Positions 18,029 to 40,533 of a DNA stretch of 40,897 bases are shown piece after piece. The stretch comes from Gemmatimonadota bacterium (GTDB lineage Bacteria; Gemmatimonadota; Gemmatimonadetes; Longimicrobiales; Gaopeijiaceae), in contig DQPL01000095.1 of assembly GCA_015664885.1 (NCBI GenBank), forward strand, positions 1-40,897. The letters are read 5' to 3'. Position 1 is the stretch's first letter. Each line of letters opens with the position of its first letter. The notes beneath the pieces were generated by a model. It saw only the letters and a list, made by a program, of their open reading frames with translations. It had not been told where the DNA came from and did not search any database. The translations under genes were made by a program, and so were the position numbers.

Positions 18029-18913
18029 TCACGTTCCGTGGGACCGACCGGCGTGCAGTCTCAGTGCTACACGCGCGGCGAGCAATCCCACCAGCGCGCC
18101 CACCGCCATGTCCACCGCATAATGGAAGCCGCCATACACGGCCCCCAGCCCCACACCCAGCGTACACAAGGTCAAAAGAATGCCCAGCTTGGTCTGGAAT
18201 CGGAGGGCGAGAAGAGCCTGCGCTGTCATGAGCGCCATGTGGGAGCTCGGGAACGCAGCGCCGCGCGACGATCCGCTTTCGAGAATCAGGAGGGTGAGAC
18301 GTCGCATGGGCCCATCGGGCACGCCCTCAGGAGGACCAAAATAGCGGGGGCCTTGAACCGGAAAGACCGCGAATACCAGATAACACGCGACCGCGGCGAT
18401 GAGCGCACCCAATACGGTGGTTGTCGCTTCCGGCATCCTCCCGCGCAAAGCCAGCACGATGGGCGGGACGTATATGGCGGGGTAGAAGCTGAGATAGGTG
18501 AGGTGGAGAGGCTCGCTCAACCAGAGCCAGGGGAACCGCGCAGCCAACTCTCGCGACGGGTCGAAGCCGGTAAGGGCGAGTTCCCAAGTCTGAACCAGGG
18601 GATCTCGGTACCCCTCGGCCAAGGCCTGATTGAGCCATGGGAGCTCGGAATAGGCAATCGGAATCGCCAACAGCGCGAGCACCACCGTGAGGCGCTGGTC
18701 CGGATCCCTGCGGCTGGCCCACCAGAGCCCGCCGCCGGCAACCGCCAGGTGAACCGGCGCGACGAACCAACCGCTCGATGCCCCCCCACTCAAGAGCCCG
18801 CCCAGGAGCAAGGGAAAAGTCACGGCAAGATAGAGTCCGAGGACCCCGATTGGATTGCGAACCAGGGATCTCAACAAGGCACGGAGGCAAATGCGGTGGT
18901 AGGGACCGGTCAA
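18029..18913 (-). CDS. PAP2-superfamily membrane phosphatase
   Basis: 294-aa multi-pass membrane protein with the PAP2 phosphatase core. FPVQGPRYFGPP (184-195) stands at the first motif, FPSSHMALM with H225 is the second, and VYGGFHYAVD with H264 and D268 is the third. H264 is the expected nucleophile. The FPVQGPRY form resembles the branch that includes inositol-phosphorylceramide synthase-like proteins. It may therefore be a phosphotransferase or a lipid-phosphate phosphatase. The start is a TTG at 18913 with a weak GTAGGA, and the true start could lie slightly downstream. It is followed 13 nt later by the AglD-like gene, and is divergent from the GT4 gene. Confidence 0.82.
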   Translation of the reverse strand: MTGPYHRICLRALLRSLVRNPIGVLGLYLAVTFPLLLGGLLSGGASSGWFVAPVHLAVAGGGLWWASRRDPDQRLTVVLALLAIPIAYSELPWLNQALAEGYRDPLVQTWELALTGFDPSRELAARFPWLWLSEPLHLTYLSFYPAIYVPPIVLALRGRMPEATTTVLGALIAAVACYLVFAVFPVQGPRYFGPPEGVPDGPMRRLTLLILESGSSRGAAFPSSHMALMTAQALLALRFQTKLGILLTLCTLGVGLGAVYGGFHYAVDMAVGALVGLLAARVALRLHAGRSHGT

Positions 18914-18999
18914 TCCTACGGAGGATGCGCCAGGAATTCCACTTTCCGTGCCGCGCTCGAGGCCGTTGCTGCTCCCCCGGACTCGTTCCAGCTTTGGAG

Positions 19000-20127
19000 A
19001 TGAGAATTGCCCTCGTCACCGACTGGTTCCACCCACGGGTGGGCGGCATCGAGAAGCACGTGCTCTCGCTCGCCCTCCGTCTTCGTGCGCGTGGCCATGA
19101 TGCCAGAGTAATCACGCCCTGGCCCGGACCCGACACCGTGAGCGGCATTCCCGTGGAACGAATCCGCGTTCGACTCGTGCCCGGTCTAGGCGTTTCGCTG
19201 AACCCGTGGCGATTAGCGCGACGACTACGTCGCGTGCTCGAGGCCGGCGAATTCGACGTGATCCATGGCCACCTGAGTTTCGGCTCCACGGCGAGTATGG
19301 TCGCAGTGTATTTGGGTTCGAAGGCATCCATTCCGGTGCTGACGACGTTGCACTCGGTTTTCCGACGTCTTGGCTGGGTCTACGTCCTGGCTCAGCCGAT
19401 TTTGCGCTGGCGACAGTGGCGGTTCCGGGCCACCGCCGTCAGTGAGGTAGTATCTGAGGACGTTCGCTGGCTGGCCCCAGGCCGCCCGATCGAGCTACTG
19501 CAGAACGCAATCGACCCGGCAGAGTGGACGATCCAGCGAGGCTCGCCTGAATCAGGTCGGCTCAGGCTGGTCGCGGCAAGCCGCCTCCAGCGCCGAAAGC
19601 GTGTGGATGCGCTGCTCAGGATCTTCGCCAGACTTCGTGAAGAGGTCGGACCTACCGTCGAGGTCACGCTCGAGATCATCGGGGACGGTCCCGACCGTAG
19701 CAAGCTAGAGAGGCTATGCAACAGCCTGTCGGTGGGTGATTCAGTCCGCTTCCTGGGCAACGGCACCGCCGAGGACGTGCGCGCCCTCTTGTCCCGAGGC
19801 GATGTCTTCGCCAATGCCTGCGTGCTGGAGTCCTTCGGCCTCGCCGCTCTAGAGGCCCTGAGCTGCGGGATCCCCGTCGTGGCCCGCTCGGAAGGTGGAG
19901 TGGGGTCGTTTATCGCGCACGGGGAAAACGGAGTCCTGTTGGCATCGGACTCCGAAATGCTATCCGCGCTGGTAGAGTTGGCTACGAGCCCAGAGGCGCT
20001 CGCTCGGCTGCGAACCGGTGCATCTGCGGGGATCCCGGCAGCCAACACGTGGGACACGCTGCTGGACCGGCACTTGGAAATCTATCGAGAGCTGATGGAG
20101 CCTACGCCGGTCGGTTACACGCCGTAG
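19000..20127 (+). CDS. GT4 family glycosyltransferase
   Basis: Retaining GT-B glycosyltransferase of 375 aa. The N-terminal Rossmann half begins MRIALVTDWFHPRVGGIEKH, a typical GT4 acceptor-side start. The C-terminal donor-binding half has VAASRLQRRKRVD, IIGDGPDRSKLERL and the EX7E motif ESFGLAALEALSCG. The overall pattern is close to the mannosyltransferases that build phosphatidylinositol mannosides and similar glycolipids, but the donor cannot be read from sequence. The ATG at 19000 is chosen because the fold begins there; GGAG lies immediately before it, closer than usual. It diverges from the PAP2/AglD-like pair. Its last 13 nt overlap the convergent EF-hand gene. Confidence 0.88.
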   Translation: MRIALVTDWFHPRVGGIEKHVLSLALRLRARGHDARVITPWPGPDTVSGIPVERIRVRLVPGLGVSLNPWRLARRLRRVLEAGEFDVIHGHLSFGSTASMVAVYLGSKASIPVLTTLHSVFRRLGWVYVLAQPILRWRQWRFRATAVSEVVSEDVRWLAPGRPIELLQNAIDPAEWTIQRGSPESGRLRLVAASRLQRRKRVDALLRIFARLREEVGPTVEVTLEIIGDGPDRSKLERLCNSLSVGDSVRFLGNGTAEDVRALLSRGDVFANACVLESFGLAALEALSCGIPVVARSEGGVGSFIAHGENGVLLASDSEMLSALVELATSPEALARLRTGASAGIPAANTWDTLLDRHLEIYRELMEPTPVGYTP

Positions 20128-20696
20128 GGCCTGAAAAGCATGTTTCCCGCCGACCCGGGGTCGTCGCTCCGGTAGAACTGGCGACCTATTTCCAGCAGCT
20201 CCTCGCGGTTGATGATGCCGTCGCTGTTCGTATCCAGTTCCACGAAGATGCTGCGCGCCAGATTCGCGCCTAGCCCGAACACACCATAAAAGTCCACGAA
20301 CTCGTCGGGACCGATCTCGCCGTCCTCGTCGGTATCGAACACCGTAAAGAGATGGTTCGTGATGGCCTCGACCTCGGCTTCGTAGCGCTCGTCGTCCTCG
20401 AGCGCGACCTGCCACTAGGCGAGCCACTCGTCCAAGTCGATGCCCCCGGACTGGTCGGTGTCCGCGGAAGAGCTCAGTGCGCCCCAGAAGGCCATGAACG
20501 CATACCGGAGCCCGTGATCGGCAAAAGAGCCCACGGGCGCTCCCCTCAGGATGCGCACGTTCTCAATCACGCGTTCGAAATCCGCGGCCGCGATCTCGCC
20601 ATCGTCGTCGATGTCGTAGAGCTGGAAATAGCGCGTCAGCTTCTTTCCTTGGAGCTCACTAAGCATCGGGACTCTCGGGACGAAGGCGTTCACCAT
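20115..20696 (-). pseudogene. Four-EF-hand calcium-binding protein interrupted by an in-frame TAG
   Basis: One reading frame of 193 codons contains four EF-hand loops: DIDDDGEIAAAD, DTDQSGGIDLDE, DTDEDGEIGPDE and DTNSDGIINREE. The last three have canonical ligands at 1, 3, 5 and 12; the first ends in D instead of E. A TAG at 20415-20417 cuts the frame after DLDEWLA. The frame then continues without shift as WQVALEDDERYEAEVEAITN into EF-hand 3. The helix between loops 2 and 3 is therefore intact on both sides and only one codon is lost. The size and 2+2 spacing match calerythrin-like bacterial calcium sensors. If not read through, only the N-terminal 93 residues are made. No signal peptide is seen. 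Base substitution or sequencing error is the simplest cause. Confidence 0.8.
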
Positions 20697-20729: not shown

Positions 20730-22328
20730 CTACCCCAACCGCACTACCACCGCTTTGGAGACCTCGTCGAGCTGCAACAGTGCGGCTCGCACCGCCGCAT
20801 CGACGTCTCCATCCACGGCCACGGCTGCCAAGGCATCGCCTCCCTTCGCCTGACGGGCCTGGTGGTACTCGGCAATGTTGATCTGGTGATCCCCAAGCAG
20901 CGTCCCCACACGCCCGATTACGCCCGGCACGTCGTGGTTTCTGAGCACTATGAGGGTCCCCGCGGGCACGATATCAACGTGAAAATCACCGATGCGCACG
21001 ATCCGCGAGTGCGTTTCTCCCAGCAATGCCCCTGCGAAGCGCAGGTCGCCTCGCTCCGCCTTGACCACGATTTCGACGAATTCCGTGTAGTCGGTGTGAC
21101 GCGTCAGCTGAGCCCTCGAGACACCGATGCCGCGCTGCTGCGCCATGTGCGCTGCGCTGACGAAGTTGACCTGGTCCTCCCCGAGGATGTTTTCGAGCAA
21201 GCCCATGAGCACGTAAGCGGACAACGGCCGTAACGCCTCATCGGACTCTCCGGCGTACCGAATCTCGATGCCCTCGAGGCCGCCTCGCGCGAGCGCACAC
21301 CCCAGTCGCCCGAGTCGCCGCCCCAGATCGAAGAGCGGTGCCAGCGCTCTGAGCGCCTCACCGCTGATCGCCGGGGCGTTGAGCGCCCGGGTGAGGTCCC
21401 CTTCGGCAAGCGCGGCTCGAACCGCCTCCCCAATCTCGGTCGCCACGAGCTCCTGAGCCTCGGTGGTCGATGCACCCAAATGCGGGGTCAGCACTAGGTT
21501 GGGCGCATCGCGCAACAGGCTCCCTTCCTCCAACGGCTCGTTACCGTATACATCGAGGGCGGCACCCCCCATGTGTCCCTCGACGAGCGACGTCGCGAGC
21601 GCGGCCTCGTCCACGACGCCGCCGCGCGCCACGTTGACCAGGAACGCCCCCTTCTTCATGCGCGACAGCGCAGAGGCGTCGATCATACCGCGGGTTTCGT
21701 CCGTGAGTGGGACGTGCAGTGAAAGTATGTCCGCTCCCTCAATGACTTCGTCGAGCGTCGCGCGTTCAACCCTCAGCTCCTCGGCGCGCTCGTCTGTGAG
21801 GTAGGGGTCGTATGCGATCACCCGCATCCCGAACGCTCGACACCGTTTCGCAACCTCGCCACCGATACGGCCCGCGCCGACGAGTCCGAGAATTCTCCCC
21901 CGCAGCTCCGCTCCTTTGAAGCGAGACCGCGCCCACTCGCCTCGGCGAACCGAGGCATCAGCTTCCACGACCCGGCGCACCATGGAGAGGATCAGCGCCA
22001 ACGTGAGTTCCGCTGCGGACACCGTGTTGCCCGCCGGCGCGTTGAGCACCGCGACGCCGCGGGCCGTCGCTGCCTCCAAGTCGATATTGTCGACACCGAC
22101 GCCAGCGCGTCCGACGACGCGCAGCTCGGTCGCCTTCTCGAGCATCTCCGCGTGCACCTTCGTGGCGCTGCGCACGATAAGCCCGTGGACCGTAGGCAAC
22201 GCCTCGTTGAACGCGGGTTCAGACGAATCGTCGATCTTGATCAACTCGAATCTCGAGTCGCCCCGCAGCGGCTCGAGGCCGCTGTCCGAGATCTTGTCCG
22301 TGATCAGGACTCTGAACTCGGTACTCAT
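20730..22328 (-). CDS. serA: D-3-phosphoglycerate dehydrogenase
   Basis: First enzyme of serine biosynthesis: oxidises 3-phosphoglycerate to 3-phosphohydroxypyruvate with NAD. 532 aa is the length of the long, type I form. GGAGGTG lies 6 nt before the ATG at 22328. The NAD-binding motif is GLVGAGRIGGEVAKRC. The catalytic arginine lies in VNVARGGVVDE, the glutamate in DVYGNEPLEEGSLL, and the histidine in LTPHLGAST. The intervening ASB domain and a C-terminal ACT domain (GVIGRVGTLLGDHQINIAEY) follow, so feedback control by serine is possible. Its ATG overlaps the TGA of the aminotransferase gene upstream (ATGA), giving a two-gene serine operon. Confidence 0.95.
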   Translation of the reverse strand: MSTEFRVLITDKISDSGLEPLRGDSRFELIKIDDSSEPAFNEALPTVHGLIVRSATKVHAEMLEKATELRVVGRAGVGVDNIDLEAATARGVAVLNAPAGNTVSAAELTLALILSMVRRVVEADASVRRGEWARSRFKGAELRGRILGLVGAGRIGGEVAKRCRAFGMRVIAYDPYLTDERAEELRVERATLDEVIEGADILSLHVPLTDETRGMIDASALSRMKKGAFLVNVARGGVVDEAALATSLVEGHMGGAALDVYGNEPLEEGSLLRDAPNLVLTPHLGASTTEAQELVATEIGEAVRAALAEGDLTRALNAPAISGEALRALAPLFDLGRRLGRLGCALARGGLEGIEIRYAGESDEALRPLSAYVLMGLLENILGEDQVNFVSAAHMAQQRGIGVSRAQLTRHTDYTEFVEIVVKAERGDLRFAGALLGETHSRIVRIGDFHVDIVPAGTLIVLRNHDVPGVIGRVGTLLGDHQINIAEYHQARQAKGGDALAAVAVDGDVDAAVRAALLQLDEVSKAVVVRLG

Positions 22329-23437
22329 CGCATCACCTCCGCAAGGACATCGAGAAGCTCGTTTAACTCGTCCAGCGTGTGGTCGCCCATATGGCCGATG
22401 CGGATGCCGGTTTCCTTGAGCTTTCCGTAGCCGCCGCCAATAACCCAACCGCGCTCCTTCATCGCGCGCACGACGTTAGGCCCACTCAGGCTCTCGGGCA
22501 GAGACACCGCCGTTACGGTGGGCGACCGATGCCCGACGGGCGCCATGACCTGCAACTGGACGCCGTCAGCGCGCATGCCGTCGACCCAGGCATGGGTCCG
22601 CTCCGCCATGGCCGAGTGGCGTGCCCACCTGCCCTCGATGGTCTCGTCGGCGATGCGCGCGAGCTGAACCTGAAGCGCATACATGGTCGAGAGCGCGGGC
22701 GTGGTTGGCGTCTGAAATTTCTCGAGGTTCTTCGCGAACGCGACCAGGTCGAAGTATTGACCCTTGCCGGTGATCGAGGCCGAACGCTCCATCATCGCCT
22801 CGGACGCCACCGCGAACGAAAGCCCGGGTGGCAGTGCCAGCGCCTTTTGGGACCCCGTCAATACGAAGTCCAAGGCCCATGCATCGGTGAGCAGCTCGGC
22901 GCCCCCGCACCCGGTGACCGAGTCGACCAGCAGAAGCGTGTCGGCGTGCTGCGCGACGACGCTCGAGATCGCGGGCAGGTCGTTGAGCACCCCCGTCGAC
23001 GTCTCGGAATGAACAACGGTCACCGCATGGTACGCGCCGGCCGCTAGCGCGGAAGCCACCACCGCCGGGTCGTGCGCCTCGCCCCAGGGAACCGCTACCT
23101 CGTCGACCTCGAGAGCGCACGCGCGCGCGATGTCGCCAAAGCGGTGGCTGAACGCTCCATTCACGAGGGAGAGCACCTTGCCCGACGCGCCGTTGCGGAC
23201 TGCGGCCTCCATGAGACCAGAGGCCGAAGAGCTCGAAATGAAGACCGGGCGGTCGGTGACGAAGACCTTCTTGAGGCCCTGCTGAAGCTCGCTCACGAAC
23301 TCCTGGATGAGCGAGCCGCGATGCCCGATCATCGCGCGCGTCTGAGCTTCCAGAACCTCCGGTCGGACTTCGGTCGGACCGGGCAAGAAAAAGCGACCGA
23401 AGGGCGTGTTCTCCCCCTCGAGATGATGCTGGCCCAC
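22325..23437 (-). CDS. Class V aminotransferase, probable phosphoserine/serine aminotransferase
   Basis: 370-aa PLP enzyme of the alanine-glyoxylate/serine-pyruvate aminotransferase group (class V). Visible are the substrate loop FFLPGPTEVRPEV, GHRGSLIQEF, SSSSASGLMEAAV, the PLP aspartate in LLLVDSVTG and the Schiff-base lysine in TGSQKALALPPG. The start is GTG 23437 with GGAG 9 nt upstream; longer in-frame extensions have no similarity. The gene overlaps serA by ATGA. In several archaea and bacteria without classical SerC, this type of aminotransferase next to serA makes phosphoserine. That is the most likely role here, by context. The alternative is serine-glyoxylate or alanine-glyoxylate transamination. 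Confidence 0.87.
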   Translation of the reverse strand: MGQHHLEGENTPFGRFFLPGPTEVRPEVLEAQTRAMIGHRGSLIQEFVSELQQGLKKVFVTDRPVFISSSSASGLMEAAVRNGASGKVLSLVNGAFSHRFGDIARACALEVDEVAVPWGEAHDPAVVASALAAGAYHAVTVVHSETSTGVLNDLPAISSVVAQHADTLLLVDSVTGCGGAELLTDAWALDFVLTGSQKALALPPGLSFAVASEAMMERSASITGKGQYFDLVAFAKNLEKFQTPTTPALSTMYALQVQLARIADETIEGRWARHSAMAERTHAWVDGMRADGVQLQVMAPVGHRSPTVTAVSLPESLSGPNVVRAMKERGWVIGGGYGKLKETGIRIGHMGDHTLDELNELLDVLAEVMR

Positions 23438-23608
23438 GTGTGCAGTCTCCGAGCGCGCCAGCGCCGGTGGTCGGTTGGGGGGGGGTCGTGTCGGCCAGCA
23501 ACATAACCCAGACCGGTCGCCACTTGTACGGGACGCGCGCGCGCCCAACACTCCAGTCACACCTCACATTCTTGCGGACCGTCCCCCATGCGTGGGAGGA
23601 CTACGGCC
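23438..23608. promoter_or_regulatory. Divergent intergenic region with G9 run and CG repeat
   Basis: 171 bases between the serine operon (minus) and the kinase remnant (plus). Contains a run of nine G at 23477-23485, and an alternating CG stretch around 23538-23549. Both promoters must lie here. The G9 run is a site where length variation or sequencing error would be expected. No clear -35/-10 pair was chosen. Confidence 0.4.
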
Positions 23609-24040
23609 ATGTCACTCAACGTCGACCTACTGGCCATCGAAGCGCTCACGCTGGGCGGTCTTGCCGTCGCTTTACACGCTTCGAGCCACCGGTACGGACT
23701 CGCCCCCCTGCTCGTGTTCATCACCGGGCTGGTGGCCGTTCTGCACGCGATGGGAGCCAACCCGATCTTGATCGACGCATGGGGGACGCGCCTGGTCGTC
23801 ACCGACTCCGTCATCGTGCCGGTGATTCTGGCGAGCGTGCTCATGCTCTACGACATACAGGGCACGGCCGTCGAGCGCGTCACGATTCTCGGGGTCGTGG
23901 GGGTCAGCGTGCTCGTACTGTCGTTGCAGCTGCTGCTGCCGATCCACCTCGCCCTGCCGGGAGGCTTCAATAGCCTTGGGCTGCCCGCCGACAGTCCGGT
24001 GGGGCCGTACACCTGCTCTCGCAACCTGGCGAGGGCCTGA
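23609..24040 (+). pseudogene. N-terminal membrane sensor of a deleted hybrid histidine kinase
   Basis: ATG 23609 has GGAGG 9 nt upstream. About five to six hydrophobic segments follow (for example LLVFITGLVAVLHAM, SVIVPVILASVLMLY, ILGVVGVSVLVLSLQLLL), ending PGGFNSLGLPADSPVG. This is the kind of membrane sensor that precedes PAS and kinase domains. From about 23992 a different frame carries the end of a histidine-kinase ATPase domain, so the membrane frame runs out of register and stops at 24040 in nonsense (PYTCSRNLARA). Everything between the membrane part and the last part of the ATPase domain is missing. It is probably not functional as a kinase, though a small membrane protein of 143 aa could be made. 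Confidence 0.6.
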
Positions 24041-24516
24041 CGGTTCGCCTACTTCTGCCTAGCGCGAATGCCACCACCGGGCAGCGCGCCGAGACCGAAC
24101 CGAGGCGTGAGGTGATGGGTGGCGGTGGCGAAACGATCCTGCTCGTGGAGGACGACCCCGGTGTTCGCCAGGTGATAGCCGCGACGCTCAGAAAGCTGGG
24201 GTACGAGGTGATCGAGACCGCGGAGGCGACGCCGGCACTGGACATGCTCGGCACGAGGGACGACATCGACCTCCTGCTCACGGACGTCGTGCTCGGGGGA
24301 GAGCTGAGCGGGCCAGAGCTGGCGAAAGCGGTAATCGATCGGCACCCCTCACTTCCGATCGTGTTCACATCGGGCTACTCGGTCGACGCGCCGCCCGACT
24401 TCATGGAATTGTCTCGGCACATTCCGCTATTGAAGAAGCCATTCCACCGCGCGGAGTTGGCTTCGTTGGTAGGCGAAAGTCTCGGGCAGAAACCGGTGCC
24501 TTCGAGCGCCACCTAG
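23992..24516 (+). CDS. Histidine-kinase ATPase tail plus receiver domain (orphan response regulator)
   Basis: One frame runs from about 23992: QSGGAVHLLSQPGEGLTVRL, the characteristic end of a HATPase_c domain, then a linker, then a complete receiver domain. The receiver has the acidic pair (LLVEDD), phospho-acceptor aspartate D57 (LLLTDVVLG, counted from ATG 24115), the conserved T/S in FTSGYS and lysine in LLKKPF. No start codon precedes the ATPase tail. GTG 24112/ATG 24115 follows GAGG closely, so a free 133-aa receiver may still be translated. Such receivers at the C-terminus of hybrid kinases normally work with the attached kinase, which is deleted here. The stop overlaps the convergent dCMP deaminase gene by 4 nt. 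Confidence 0.75.
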   Translation, partial: QSGGAVHLLSQPGEGLTVRLLLPSANATTGQRAETEPRREVMGGGGETILLVEDDPGVRQVIAATLRKLGYEVIETAEATPALDMLGTRDDIDLLLTDVVLGGELSGPELAKAVIDRHPSLPIVFTSGYSVDAPPDFMELSRHIPLLKKPFHRAELASLVGESLGQKPVPSSAT

Positions 24517-25031
24517 CGCCACTCGTCCTTCCACCGCGTGTAGTGCACCGCGACCAGGCCCGCCTGCTCCAGCACCTGCAAACCATCTTGGTTGCGGTAC
24601 GGATCGCGGTAGAACACATGAGAAACGTTCGCCTGCACGATCAGCTTCGCGCACATCTTACAAGGGCTCGCCGTGATGAACGCCACCTTGTCCCTCAGGT
24701 CACCGGGTGACTTCACCAGCGCGTTCATCTCGGAATGGATACAGCCGCACATTCCTACCTCATCCGAGTCACAGTGGTTCGGGAATCCTCGCGCGTTGCC
24801 GTTGTAGCCAATCGAGACGACGTGCTCGAGGTAGGCATCCGTCAGAACCGTGCCGACCCGCAGACGAGCGCACGTCGAGCGTTTCGCGAGCTCCTCGGCC
24901 ATGCGCATGTACACTTCGTACAGCGGAGGGCGCGTCACCTGCTCCACGGACGCGACGGAGTCCTCGGGCACTTCGACGACGTTGAGAGGATGCGTGTTCG
25001 CCGGTACCCAGTCCTTGAACATGATCGGCAT
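24513..25031 (-). CDS. dCMP deaminase family protein
   Basis: Zinc-dependent cytidine/deoxycytidylate deaminase fold of 172 aa, making dUMP from dCMP or a related deamination. The zinc site is complete: CIHSEMNAL supplies H99 and catalytic E101, and SPCKMCAK supplies C124 and C127. RSTCARLRVGTVLTD and GYNGNARGFPNHCD are family signatures for the nucleotide-binding site and second metal region. The first 30 residues are an extension before the domain. ATG 25031 is used; an internal ATG at 25022 is possible. It follows the spermidine-synthase-like gene by 44 nt on the same strand and is probably co-transcribed with it. Confidence 0.9.
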   Translation of the reverse strand: MPIMFKDWVPANTHPLNVVEVPEDSVASVEQVTRPPLYEVYMRMAEELAKRSTCARLRVGTVLTDAYLEHVVSIGYNGNARGFPNHCDSDEVGMCGCIHSEMNALVKSPGDLRDKVAFITASPCKMCAKLIVQANVSHVFYRDPYRNQDGLQVLEQAGLVAVHYTRWKDEWR

Positions 25032-25075
25032 CTAGTGCCCCGCGTCAGGAGTTCGGCGCAGAACCGAACACCAAG

Positions 25076-26578
25076 TCAGTCCCACGTGAGGCCCGCGAGG
25101 AAGACCTTGGCTTGAAGGTATTCGACCGGTGCCCAGGCGTCGGTGAGCGGACGTCCGGCGGCTCCGGTTCCTGCGCGTGGCCAGTCGACGTCAGGTAGCG
25201 CCTGCGCATCGAGAGCCGCTACGACCACGAGGTTCTGCGTCACCTCGGCATCGCTATTTGGAGTAGCCGGATAGATCACGACCGCGGGGAACACCTCCTG
25301 CAACGTGGCCTGAAACCGCTCGATGAACCCCAGGCCGGGCCCGGCGAGCGGCGAGAGCACGTTCGCCATGAAGAGGCCGTCGGCTTCGAGATGATCCGTC
25401 ATTTCCGTGAGCGCCTCCACGGTGACCATCGTCCACGGCACGGTGAGCAGGTGATCGAAGATGTCGAGATAGATCAGATCGTACCGCTGATTCGAGTTGT
25501 GCAGATGCACGCGTGCATCGTCGTGCACGACTCTGATGTTGGGATAGTCGTCTCGGCCGTATGCGAAGTACTGCTCAGCCAGTTCGGTCACGACCGGATC
25601 GATCTCCACGACGTCGATGCTCATGTCCGGCCTCCAGCGACTGAATGCAGCCGGAAGGGACAACGCGGCACCCCCCAGGACCAGCATCGACTGCACGCGC
25701 TCTATGACCGGCTCGAGCAGCAATCCGCTCACGTCCACATACTCGTGGGCCGGATCGCCGGCGTCGAGGTATTCGAGCGAGGAGGAACCGCCGTTCTGCC
25801 AAAGAGCGCGCACCATGCGGCCGTCCCGACCGACGCGCTCCGTGACCGACACCGCCGAGTAGAGTGTCTGCCGTCGAGCCAGGGCGTCAGGCGGACGCTG
25901 AGAGCCGGCATAGGCCAACACGCTCATCACGATCGCAGCCAAGCCGGTCACGTGCGGCGGAACGCCTTTTCCAAGGATGACTCCCGACAAGGCGGCGAGC
26001 GCCAAGAGCGCGATCGCGGTTATCGCGAGAAGTACGGGAAGAGGAAACGCGGGCAGCAACACGAAACCCGTCATGAACGTGCCCGCGATGGAGCCCGCCG
26101 TGGCGACCGCGCTCACGTCACCGGCGCGTCGGCCCACATTCTCGAGGCTGCGCGTGTCAGCCTGGACGAGATAGGGCACCACAGCTCCCAGACAGAGCAC
26201 TGCCGGCGCAAACAGTATGACGGCACTCGCGAGAGCACCGGGAATGAAGCCGAGAAAGTCTCGGGCCACCCATGGTAGACCACTTCCGACGATCGGGAGC
26301 GCTGCGGTGATCGCCGCCGCCACCAGAACCCACGAAAGAGGCACCTTGCCGCCATCGGCCAGCCGGCCGCCGAGGTGGCTGCCCACCGCAAGAGCGGCGA
26401 GGATCACCCCGATCACGGCGGTCCACGGGACCGCCGAGAGACCGAACACGGGTGCGATGAGGCGCGTGCCGGCTATTTCGATGGTCAGCACCGCGAAGCC
26501 GGAGCCGAAGGCGAGCAGGAACAGGCCCAAGCGCCGCGATCCGGTCGGGCGAGGCGGAGCGCTCGTGGAATCGGTCAC
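25076..26578 (-). CDS. Membrane-fused spermidine synthase-like protein
   Basis: 500-aa fusion of an N-terminal multi-pass membrane domain and a C-terminal spermidine-synthase-type Rossmann domain. About seven hydrophobic segments occupy residues 15-220, beginning LGLFLLAFGSGFAVLTIEIA. The C-terminal half has SMLVLGGAALSLPAAFSRW (cofactor loop, altered from the usual GGGDG), VDVVEIDPVVTELA (acidic residue binding the adenosyl group), DDARVHL and YDLIYLDIFDH. The active-site aspartate of aminopropyltransferases, in a D-x-x-D position, is not obvious, so true polyamine synthesis is uncertain. The GTG at 26578 has TGAGG 5 nt upstream and lies just after the thioredoxin-like gene. A deoxyhypusine-synthase-like gene is 13 kb away. 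Confidence 0.85.
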   Translation of the reverse strand: MTDSTSAPPRPTGSRRLGLFLLAFGSGFAVLTIEIAGTRLIAPVFGLSAVPWTAVIGVILAALAVGSHLGGRLADGGKVPLSWVLVAAAITAALPIVGSGLPWVARDFLGFIPGALASAVILFAPAVLCLGAVVPYLVQADTRSLENVGRRAGDVSAVATAGSIAGTFMTGFVLLPAFPLPVLLAITAIALLALAALSGVILGKGVPPHVTGLAAIVMSVLAYAGSQRPPDALARRQTLYSAVSVTERVGRDGRMVRALWQNGGSSSLEYLDAGDPAHEYVDVSGLLLEPVIERVQSMLVLGGAALSLPAAFSRWRPDMSIDVVEIDPVVTELAEQYFAYGRDDYPNIRVVHDDARVHLHNSNQRYDLIYLDIFDHLLTVPWTMVTVEALTEMTDHLEADGLFMANVLSPLAGPGLGFIERFQATLQEVFPAVVIYPATPNSDAEVTQNLVVVAALDAQALPDVDWPRAGTGAAGRPLTDAWAPVEYLQAKVFLAGLTWD

Positions 26579-38816: not shown

Positions 38817-39383
38817 TCACGCGAACGCTGGTCCCAGGTATTCTCTGCGGAACTGGTTGTGCACGAGCGCTTCGCTGGGACTGCCAATGTGGTGCGTGGT
38901 ACCAGCCACGGACCAGAGGATCACGTCGGATATGTCCAAAAGGACGCGCGCGTCATGGCCCGAGGTCACGACGGCTGTTCCGCGGGCGGCTACACGGCGC
39001 AGAGCCTGTCCCAGCATCTCCTGATCAATCGGCGTCAAACCCACGACCGGTTCGTCCGCGACCAACACTTTTGGCAAGCGAGCAAACGCCAAAGCAAGGG
39101 AGACTCGGACTCGCTCGCCACCGGACAGCGAATAGACACGTTGCTGCATCAGGTCCGCCAGGCGGGCGTCCTCGAGAGCTCCACGGTGCAGGACGCCGAC
39201 GGCCACGTTCCCGTCGCCGATGTCGGCGATCTTGATTTGCTGGTCGATGGAAGGTCCGAGAGTCTGCCGGACGGTCTCGATCTCCGACGCCAGGATATCG
39301 GTCGCCTCCGGCACCTGCGCGGACGCAGCCACCGGAACGGCCGCAAAGAGCATGATAAACATGGTCGGACGAACGTTCTTCAT
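38817..39383 (-). pseudogene. Chimeric ORF: exported cupin-like N-terminus fused to C-terminal half of an ABC ATPase
   Basis: 188 codons with GAGGGG before ATG 39383. Residues 1-22 are a signal peptide (FIMLFAAVPVAASAQ). Residues 24-67 (ATDILASEIETVRQTLGPSI, IADIGDGNVAVGVLHRGA) look like the start of a secreted cupin. At about residue 68 the sequence changes without a stop to the second half of an ABC transporter ATPase: signature LSGGE (86-90), Walker B VLVADEP (106-112), and H143 in SGHD. Walker A and the Q-loop are absent, so ATP hydrolysis is not possible. The joint (about 39180) lies inside an inverted repeat, GGCGTCCT and AGGACGCC, 17 nt apart. A deletion joined two unrelated genes in frame. 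Confidence 0.78.
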
Positions 39384-39558: not shown

Positions 39559-40533
39559 TCAGTCCCCGAGCACGTACGAGAAGATCAGCGGCGCCACGAT
39601 CGAGGCGTCAGAGTTGATTTCGAAGCGGGGCGTCGAGGGTTCGAGCTTTCCCCACGTGACCTTCTCGTTGGCGGGCGCGCCGGAATAGCCCCCATACGAT
39701 GCTCGAGCGTCCGTGATCTGGCAGAAATATCCCCAGAACGGGACGTCTTCCTTCAGGTCCTGGATGAGGCTGGGCACAGCGCAGATAGCGAAGTCCCCGG
39801 CGATGCCACCCCCGATCTGGAAGAAACCGACCGACGGCACCGCACCAGCCCCGTGATTGGCCCGATACCACTCGATGAGCGCCTGGAATTGCTCCGTACC
39901 GGTCTTCACGCACTGATGATCAGGCAGCAGGCCCAGCATCACGTTGGCGGCGAACATGTTGCCCGTGGTGGAGTCTTCCCACCCGGGCGCGAATACGGGG
40001 ATTCCCGTCTCCCCGGCGGCAAGCATCCAGGAGTGGGCTGGATCACTCTGATAGTGCTGTGAGAGCGTCGGGTCCCGAAGCACCTGCAAGAGGAACTCAG
40101 CCGGTGTCATCCGGTCACCGTTCTCGGCCGCGCCCTGCCACGTCGCGAGCAACCGAGCTTCGATGTGTCGCATGACCGTCTCGGGAATGCACGTGTCGGT
40201 GACGCGGTTCATGCCCCTCTCTTGCAACTCCTGCTCATCCGCGGCCGAAAGATTCCGCCACGAGGGCACGATCTCGTAGTCGCGCTTCGCCACCAAGTTG
40301 AAGACATCCTCCTCCAGGTTCGCACCGGTGCAGGAGATCGCGTGCACTTTCCCCTCGCGAATCATGCGCGCAAGAATGACCCCCAACTCGCCTGTCGAGG
40401 CGGCTCCGGCCATGGCGAGTAGCATCTTGCCACCCGCGTCTATATGCGCCTCGTACGCCCGCGCTGCCTCGACGAGCTCTCGCGCGTTGAAGTGGCGATA
40501 GTGCTTCTCTAGGAAATCCTGGACTGCGCCCAA
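39559..40533 (-). CDS. Deoxyhypusine synthase family protein
   Basis: 324-aa enzyme of the deoxyhypusine/homospermidine synthase family, which transfers an aminobutyl group from spermidine using NAD. The catalytic-lysine block is visible as NEKVTWGKLEP (compare the VSWGK segment of eukaryotic deoxyhypusine synthase). CTGANLEED, NRVTDTCIPE and GFFQIGGGIAGDFAICAVPS are NAD and substrate-binding segments. The TTG start at 40533 has GGGAG 7 nt upstream. Bacteria have no eIF5A, so bacterial members probably make homospermidine or act on an unknown acceptor. A spermidine-synthase-like gene lies 13 kb away, which may be coincidental. Confidence 0.88.
   Translation of the reverse strand: MGAVQDFLEKHYRHFNARELVEAARAYEAHIDAGGKMLLAMAGAASTGELGVILARMIREGKVHAISCTGANLEEDVFNLVAKRDYEIVPSWRNLSAADEQELQERGMNRVTDTCIPETVMRHIEARLLATWQGAAENGDRMTPAEFLLQVLRDPTLSQHYQSDPAHSWMLAAGETGIPVFAPGWEDSTTGNMFAANVMLGLLPDHQCVKTGTEQFQALIEWYRANHGAGAVPSVGFFQIGGGIAGDFAICAVPSLIQDLKEDVPFWGYFCQITDARASYGGYSGAPANEKVTWGKLEPSTPRFEINSDASIVAPLIFSYVLGD

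What the first reader, a model, noticed from the sequence alone, without database searches (positions are those of the whole stretch)
20415..20417. Single in-frame TAG between EF-hands 2 and 3 of an otherwise perfect calcium-binding gene
Four EF-hand loops and the linking helices lie in one frame, with only one TAG (after EWLA, before WQVAL). No other damage is seen. A TAG here leaves a two-EF-hand protein and a two-EF-hand tail. A recent nonsense change, read-through to give two protein sizes, or a base-call error are possible.
Basis: seen in the sequence. Interest (0 to 1): 0.55.

Follow-up and report, generated by a model that had tools for sequence, protein, structure and literature searches.

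The report
Calcium-binding gene caught being lost
A bacterial genome, probably of an uncultured species, carries a four-part calcium-binding protein gene with one stop signal in its middle, and relatives show the same gene stopped elsewhere, partly deleted or reduced to a scrap, so this looks like ordinary gene loss seen at an early stage.

Summary
A single in-frame TAG lies on the minus strand at 20415-20417, between EF-hands 2 and 3 of an otherwise open four-EF-hand frame. The protein resembles calexcitin and sarcoplasmic calcium-binding proteins over nearly its whole length.

Of 121 genomes searched in the family, 20 hold a match. Of the 17 frames I aligned, 13 are intact, one is cut by a contig end, and three carry one stop each, at residues 94 (window), 95 (G014) and 71 (G128). 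Two further copies are internally deleted. At the matching locus of the one other genome of the genus seen (G001:C9), only a 32-base scrap of EF-hand 4 remains. Control genes (75 matches) gave no stop inside the part counted as coding.

TAG seems a normal stop here: RF1 is present, 11 of 23 large window frames end in TAG, and none of the 44 tRNAs above cut-off has a CUA anticodon.

Best reading: a recent nonsense mutation in a dispensable gene. Base-call error is not excluded; readthrough has little support. Interest is low.

The parts
20115..20666 (-). Four-EF-hand calcium-binding protein gene, broken by one TAG; start taken as the ATG at 20666 as in orthologues (an upstream in-frame ATG is at 20696); TAA at 20117-20115
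20415..20417 (-). The premature TAG (residue 94 counted from ATG 20696). All 16 other frames aligned have a sense codon, Tyr, in this column
20580..20615 (-). EF-hand loop 1 (residues 28-39)
   Evidence: read from the translation; Pfam
20427..20462 (-). EF-hand loop 2 (residues 79-90), just before the stop
   Evidence: read from the translation; Pfam
20301..20336 (-). EF-hand loop 3 (residues 121-132), after the stop
   Evidence: read from the translation; Pfam
20199..20234 (-). EF-hand loop 4 (residues 155-166), after the stop
   Evidence: read from the translation; Pfam
20192..20223 (-). Stretch matching the 32-base relic left between serA and the glycosyltransferase in G001:C9 (28 of 32 bases identical)
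20730..22448 (-). serA-like D-3-phosphoglycerate dehydrogenase, upstream neighbour on the same strand (true start probably later than 22448); found within 1.5 kb of the EF-hand gene in 12 of 19 loci examined
18778..20127 (+). Glycosyltransferase (Pfam Glyco_transf_4 and Glycos_transf_1), convergent downstream neighbour; its end overlaps the EF-hand gene's end by 13 bases; true start probably later than 18778

Best explanation
A young pseudogene. The gene encoded a calexcitin / sarcoplasmic-type four-EF-hand protein, found beside serA in three genera of this family. In the window's lineage a point mutation made a TAG between EF-hands 2 and 3, so translation most likely ends with an 83-residue (or 93-residue) product holding EF-hands 1 and 2. 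The tail, with EF-hands 3 and 4 and the conserved C-terminus, has no good restart site and is probably not made. The gene is dispensable and is lost repeatedly: single stops in three genomes, internal deletions in two, and near-complete removal leaving a scrap at the matching locus of the other genome seen in the window's genus. Shown: the stop in the assembly, the intact orthologues, the other lesions, the scrap, and the lack of a CUA tRNA among those found. Inferred: that the stop is real in the cell, that it abolishes function, and that it is recent.
For: One TAG in an otherwise open frame. 13 intact full-length orthologues, and a sense codon at this column in all 16 other aligned frames. 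Other lesions at other places: G014 TGA at residue 95, G128 TGA at residue 71, G091 TAG at residue 16 plus an internal deletion, G006 internal deletion with a frame change. G001:C9 has serA (90% identical) and the glycosyltransferase (76%) almost abutting, with 28 of 32 bases of EF-hand 4 left between them (0 of 2,000 shuffles of the gap score as high). Patchy presence: 20 of 121 family genomes. TAG works as a stop: RF1 over cut-off; 44 tRNAs above cut-off, none with a CUA, UCA or UUA anticodon; 11 of 23 large window frames that I picked end in TAG, including both neighbours. Controls: of 62 serA and 13 glycosyltransferase matches none has a stop inside the part counted as coding (35,881 codons), against 3 in 3,040 EF-hand codons. 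Rapid deletion of young pseudogenes is described for Salmonella in PMC2916853 (abstract read).
Against: The tail shows no sign of decay. Conserved columns kept: 29 of 32 before and 31 of 33 after the stop. The tail branch (0.257) lies within the range of the other 15 tips (0.034-0.418). pN/pS is 0.30 in the tail and 0.36 in the head against G129. A young pseudogene predicts this, but so do readthrough and a base-call error. The three frames with a stop carry exactly one stop each and no frameshift. Two of the three stops lie in adjacent codons (94 and 95); chance gives such a pair in 9-16% of simulations. A 7-pair RNA stem lies shortly behind the stop, though the stretch as a whole folds like shuffles. 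The matching locus in G001 was assigned on identity and gene order; G001 also holds an intact copy on a short contig (C79), read here as misbinned or transferred because its serA is closest to G129 (84%) and its EF-hand gene falls in that genus's clade. If that copy is G001's own, the gene is not lost from that genome. No expression data.
Confidence: 0.77

Rival explanations
1. Base-call or assembly error: the gene is intact in the organism and the TAG is an artefact of the assembly.
For: The tail is as conserved as the head; nothing else in the frame is damaged; no reads could be seen. Assembly error is a documented source of internal-stop pseudogenes (PMC11017572: abstract read, four terms searched in its text).
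Against: 75 control matches in the same set of 121 genomes have no stop inside the part counted as coding; at the 95% upper rate 0.25 stops would be expected in the EF-hand set, against 3 seen (P about 0.002). serA, the glycosyltransferase and RF1 of this genome are open. Deletions and the scrap in relatives point to real loss. The controls average over the family and do not measure this one base.
Confidence: 0.11
2. The truncated two-EF-hand protein is itself functional; the stop shortens the protein without ending its use.
For: EF-hands 1 and 2 are intact before the stop; G014 ends one residue later.
Against: The tail is as conserved as the head, so it was not released from constraint long ago. 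G128 stops at residue 71, before loop 2. The calexcitin-type proteins align over all four hands and the C-terminus. The matching locus in G001 kept neither half whole.
Confidence: 0.07
3. Programmed or leaky readthrough of the TAG makes both a two-EF-hand and a four-EF-hand protein.
For: Tail still looks constrained; three orthologues have exactly one stop and no frameshift; two of those stops are in adjacent codons between EF-hands 2 and 3; a 7-pair stem lies shortly behind the stop.
Against: The stop is not conserved in place or type (TAG 94, TGA 95, TGA 71; 13 intact). No CUA tRNA among 44, and RF1 present. The stretch behind the stop folds no better than shuffles (z -0.30; 65 of 200 shuffles fold as well). 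The stop is followed by TGG, not by the tobacco-mosaic-type readthrough context (recalled, not from a call). The adjacency is within chance.
Confidence: 0.04
4. Two genes: the tail is started separately after the stop.
For: A GTG in frame lies at 20342.
Against: It lies at residue 119, just before loop 3, and would remove most of that hand's entry helix; by eye the 20 bases before it hold no ribosome-binding-like run. The 13 intact orthologues are one frame.
Confidence: 0.01

Closest known systems
Calexcitin / juvenile hormone diol kinase / sarcoplasmic calcium-binding proteins (PDB 7pjd, 6kth, 2ccm, 1q80)
   Same: Sequence match over residues 11-188 (14-183 for 1q80); the four best alignments shown include the EWL..W-like motif and a C-terminal stretch like SDDP..GN.LF
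   Different: Bacterial, sits beside serA, and is broken by a stop in this genome; these solved proteins are animal ones (recalled)
Calerythrin (PDB 1nya), a bacterial four-EF-hand protein (recalled)
   Same: EF-hand protein of similar size; E 5.3e-11 over residues 18-175
   Different: Weaker match than the calexcitin group
Young bacterial pseudogenes and their removal by deletion (PMC2916853, Salmonella; abstract read)
   Same: Single recent-looking stop; other lineages show deletions and a scrap
   Different: Here one genome per species, so age and frequency within the species are unknown

Membership tests
Calexcitin / sarcoplasmic-type four-EF-hand proteins | Four EF-hand loops in one chain | tested here: met
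   Read across the stop with X: four loops, Pfam EF-hand models over cut-off. As translated in this genome, only two remain.
Calexcitin / sarcoplasmic-type four-EF-hand proteins | Near full-length sequence similarity | tested here: met
   Residues 11-188, E 9.9e-16 to calexcitin and 6.5e-23 to juvenile hormone diol kinase
Calexcitin / sarcoplasmic-type four-EF-hand proteins | Calcium binding | not testable with these tools
   No binding data
Bacterial pseudogene | Lesion relative to intact orthologues | tested here: met
   13 intact orthologues; TAG at a column that is sense in all 16 other aligned frames
Bacterial pseudogene | Dispensable: lost or broken in relatives | tested here: met
   20 of 121 genomes hold it; stops, deletions, and a scrap in G001:C9
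Bacterial pseudogene | Relaxed constraint after the lesion | tested here: inconclusive
   No relaxation seen in the tail; expected if the lesion is young
Bacterial pseudogene | No full-length product | not testable with these tools
   No proteome or ribosome data
Programmed stop-codon readthrough gene | Stop conserved at one position in orthologues | tested here: not met
   13 of 17 intact, 1 fragment with sense codons at residues 94 and 95, 3 with stops at three different residues
Programmed stop-codon readthrough gene | Stimulating RNA structure behind the stop | tested here: inconclusive
   A 7-pair stem is predicted, but the stretch has z -0.30 against shuffles; pseudoknots and conservation of the stem were not tested
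Programmed stop-codon readthrough gene or TAG reassignment | CUA-decoding tRNA or loss of RF1 | tested here: not met
   44 tRNAs above cut-off, none CUA; RF1 over cut-off; one weaker tRNA-like match reads CCU by my reading of the alignment. No tRNA-His was found either, so the set may be incomplete.
XopAW type III effector family (NCBIfam NF041410) | Score over the curated cut-off | tested here: not met
   43.8 bits against a cut-off of 120

The most novel reading that the evidence does not exclude
In this bacterial family, a calexcitin-like gene beside serA repeatedly acquires single stops in or around EF-hand 2 while the rest of the frame stays under selection. Leaky stop codons, or stops that vary within populations, would then work as a low-output switch between a short and a four-EF-hand protein.
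Probability: 0.04. Interest if true: 0.6.

Novelty: new member of a known kind. Interest (0 to 1): 0.17.

Why it matters
It is a clean small case of gene loss. One gene next to serA can be seen intact, stopped, partly deleted and reduced to a scrap in related genomes. It also shows that a lone stop in an assembly can be judged by relatives and control genes before readthrough is proposed. If the stop were read through, it would be an unusual regulated calcium protein in bacteria, but the evidence does not favour that.

Tried and rejected
Readthrough: tRNA set, RF1, stop usage, RNA folding behind the stop and conservation of the stop were tested; little support. Restart in the tail: six in-frame starts, five GTG and one late ATG, no ribosome-binding-like run seen before the first. 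Adjacent stops in the window and G014 as a hotspot: 9-16% by chance for any two of three, so dropped.

Control genes: searches flagged 9 rows (3 serA, 6 glycosyltransferase) with stops. I fetched the 8 stretches that hold them and re-read them. In the rows where the stop could be placed it lies at query residues 27-30 (serA) or 62 (glycosyltransferase), before the solidly aligned part; in the others the aligned part has no stop. I take this to mean that my queries began before the true starts. The counts therefore start at residue 25 of the 548-residue serA query and residue 80 of the glycosyltransferase query; these limits were set after seeing the flags, and the row ranges were typed. A third neighbouring window frame, 22566-23567, shows three stops when read in G001; it has no Pfam match, I doubt that it is a gene, and I did not use it as a control.

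Scraps downstream of serA in 20 other genomes: none convincing. One reverse-strand EF-hand protein match in L092 and short DNA matches of 13-17 bases were put down to chance; serA's end was not located in L093 and L096, L096 is cut by the contig end, and G008 (L096) holds an EF-hand fragment elsewhere. Rows left out of the 17-frame alignment: 4 of the 21 rows (L024 and L026 of G144, a distant copy and a fragment; L025 and L010, deleted copies). L007, L008 and L009 from the order were also left out, and L011 (the one relative confirmed in genome contigs) gave the same protein as L022. The fragment L006 was left out of the tree. The promoter and terminator scan found nothing. I ran no structure prediction and no phage or plasmid search. 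Paper searches were used only to find PMC11017572; PMC2916853 was opened by its DOI. One search failed on a thread setting and was rerun.

Full report
Check of the observation. The frame lies on the minus strand. From ATG 20696 (or ATG 20666, where the orthologues begin) to the TAA at 20117-20115 there is one stop, TAG at 20417-20415, after EWLA and before WQVAL. Four EF-hand loops are in that frame, and Pfam EF-hand models match above their cut-offs. By sequence the read-through protein matches solved calexcitin-type proteins over residues 11-188. A weak match to the XopAW model is far below its cut-off (43.8 against 120 bits). The window is contig C59 of a 3.96 Mb, 136-contig genome rated 99% complete. 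A relative in the same family (G104) has the same protein as a contig deposited as a Gemmatimonadetes metagenome assembly (L022 and L011), so the organism is probably of that group; this is inference.

Relatives. In the family, 20 of 121 genomes hold a match; in the order, 23 of 154, a search that includes family genomes. I aligned 17 of the 21 family rows. Thirteen are intact, one is cut by a contig end (L006), and three carry one stop each: the window TAG at residue 94, G014 TGA at 95, G128 TGA at 71. At residue 94 all 16 others have Tyr. Two of the four rows left out are damaged copies: G091 (TAG at residue 16 and an internal deletion) and G006 (internal deletion with a frame change). The gene lies beside serA in 12 of 19 loci examined, which points to inheritance in place; several of the others have other neighbours or end at a contig edge.

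The scrap. In the only other genome of the window's genus that the listings show (G001), contig C9 carries serA (90% identical to the window's) and the glycosyltransferase (76%) almost end to end. The 50 bases from serA's stop to where the DNA match to the glycosyltransferase gene resumes include 32 that match EF-hand 4 of the window gene, 28 identical, on the right strand and in the right order; none of 2,000 shuffles of the gap scored as high (best shuffle 16, observed 24). A contig of G104 is 99% identical over this stretch and is probably cross-binned. G001 also has an intact copy on a 6.7 kb contig (C79). Of 11 serA loci compared, the one closest to C79's is that of G129, of genus g6 (84%, against 76% for the window's), and the C79 EF-hand gene falls inside the clade of g6 genes (support 97 for the clade, 31 for its exact place). 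I read C79 as misbinned or transferred; this is the softest link in the argument. Downstream of serA in 20 further genomes I found no convincing scrap.

Is it an error? As controls I searched the two neighbours in the same 121 genomes. Nine rows were flagged with stops; on re-reading, these lie before the solidly aligned part or outside it. Counting from where coding plausibly starts, limits I set after seeing the flags, 62 serA and 13 glycosyltransferase matches give 35,881 codons and no stop, against 3 stops in 3,040 EF-hand codons. If the error rate sat at its 95% upper bound, 0.25 stops would be expected in the EF-hand set (P about 0.002 for three or more). By genes, 3 of 17 against 0 of 75 gives Fisher P 0.005. 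Errors are therefore unlikely to explain the set, but this single base in this genome cannot be checked without reads, and assembly errors are a known source of such calls (PMC11017572, abstract read).

Is it read through? RF1 is present. ARAGORN gave sense anticodons for the 44 tRNAs above the Rfam cut-off. Five weaker Rfam matches gave no ARAGORN gene; the best of them looks like a tRNA, and I read its anticodon as CCU from the alignment. No tRNA-His was found, so the set may be incomplete. Of 23 large frames that I picked in the window, some without a Pfam match, 11 end in TAG, among them both neighbours. RNA behind the stop has a 7-pair stem but folds as a whole like shuffled sequence. The stops in the three orthologues differ in place and type; two are in adjacent codons, which 9-16% of simulations reproduce. 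Against my reading, the tail shows no relaxation: 31 of 33 conserved columns kept, a tail branch within the range of the others, and pN/pS of 0.30 against 0.36 in the head. A young mutation predicts this as well as readthrough does. The window's head branch is the longest of the 16 (0.694), which I cannot explain firmly.

Conclusion. The simplest account is a recent nonsense mutation in a dispensable calexcitin-like gene that this family loses again and again: stop, internal deletion, scrap. Fast removal of young pseudogenes by deletion is described for Salmonella (PMC2916853, abstract read). The finding is real but ordinary.

Noticed in passing
window 38817-39383 (-): A 188-residue frame joins a signal-peptide-like head to the second half of an ABC ATPase (Pfam PF00005 positions 55-136 of 137 only, so the Walker A half is missing). 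It looks like a deletion fusion, a second broken gene in the window.
   Followed up: partly
L060 (G000:C115:300-3300): 18 tRNA genes lie in about 2.6 kb, 17 of them on one strand.
   Followed up: no
G000 tRNA set (L027-L072): No tRNA-His was found among the 44 tRNAs above cut-off, although the genome is rated 99% complete.
   Followed up: no
L073 (G001:C9), L074 (G104:C2), L101 (G001:C79): The serA-glycosyltransferase stretch is 99% identical between genomes placed in two genera, and G001 holds two different serA loci; cross-binning of contigs is likely.
   Followed up: partly
window 39559-40533 (-): A deoxyhypusine synthase-like gene (PF01916) in a bacterium.
   Followed up: no
window 22450-25076: Three frames here (22566-23567, 23557-23844 and 23967-24368, minus strand) have no Pfam match at E 1e-5, and the first shows stops when read in G001; what is coded between serA and the deaminase at 24513-25031 is unclear.
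   Followed up: no
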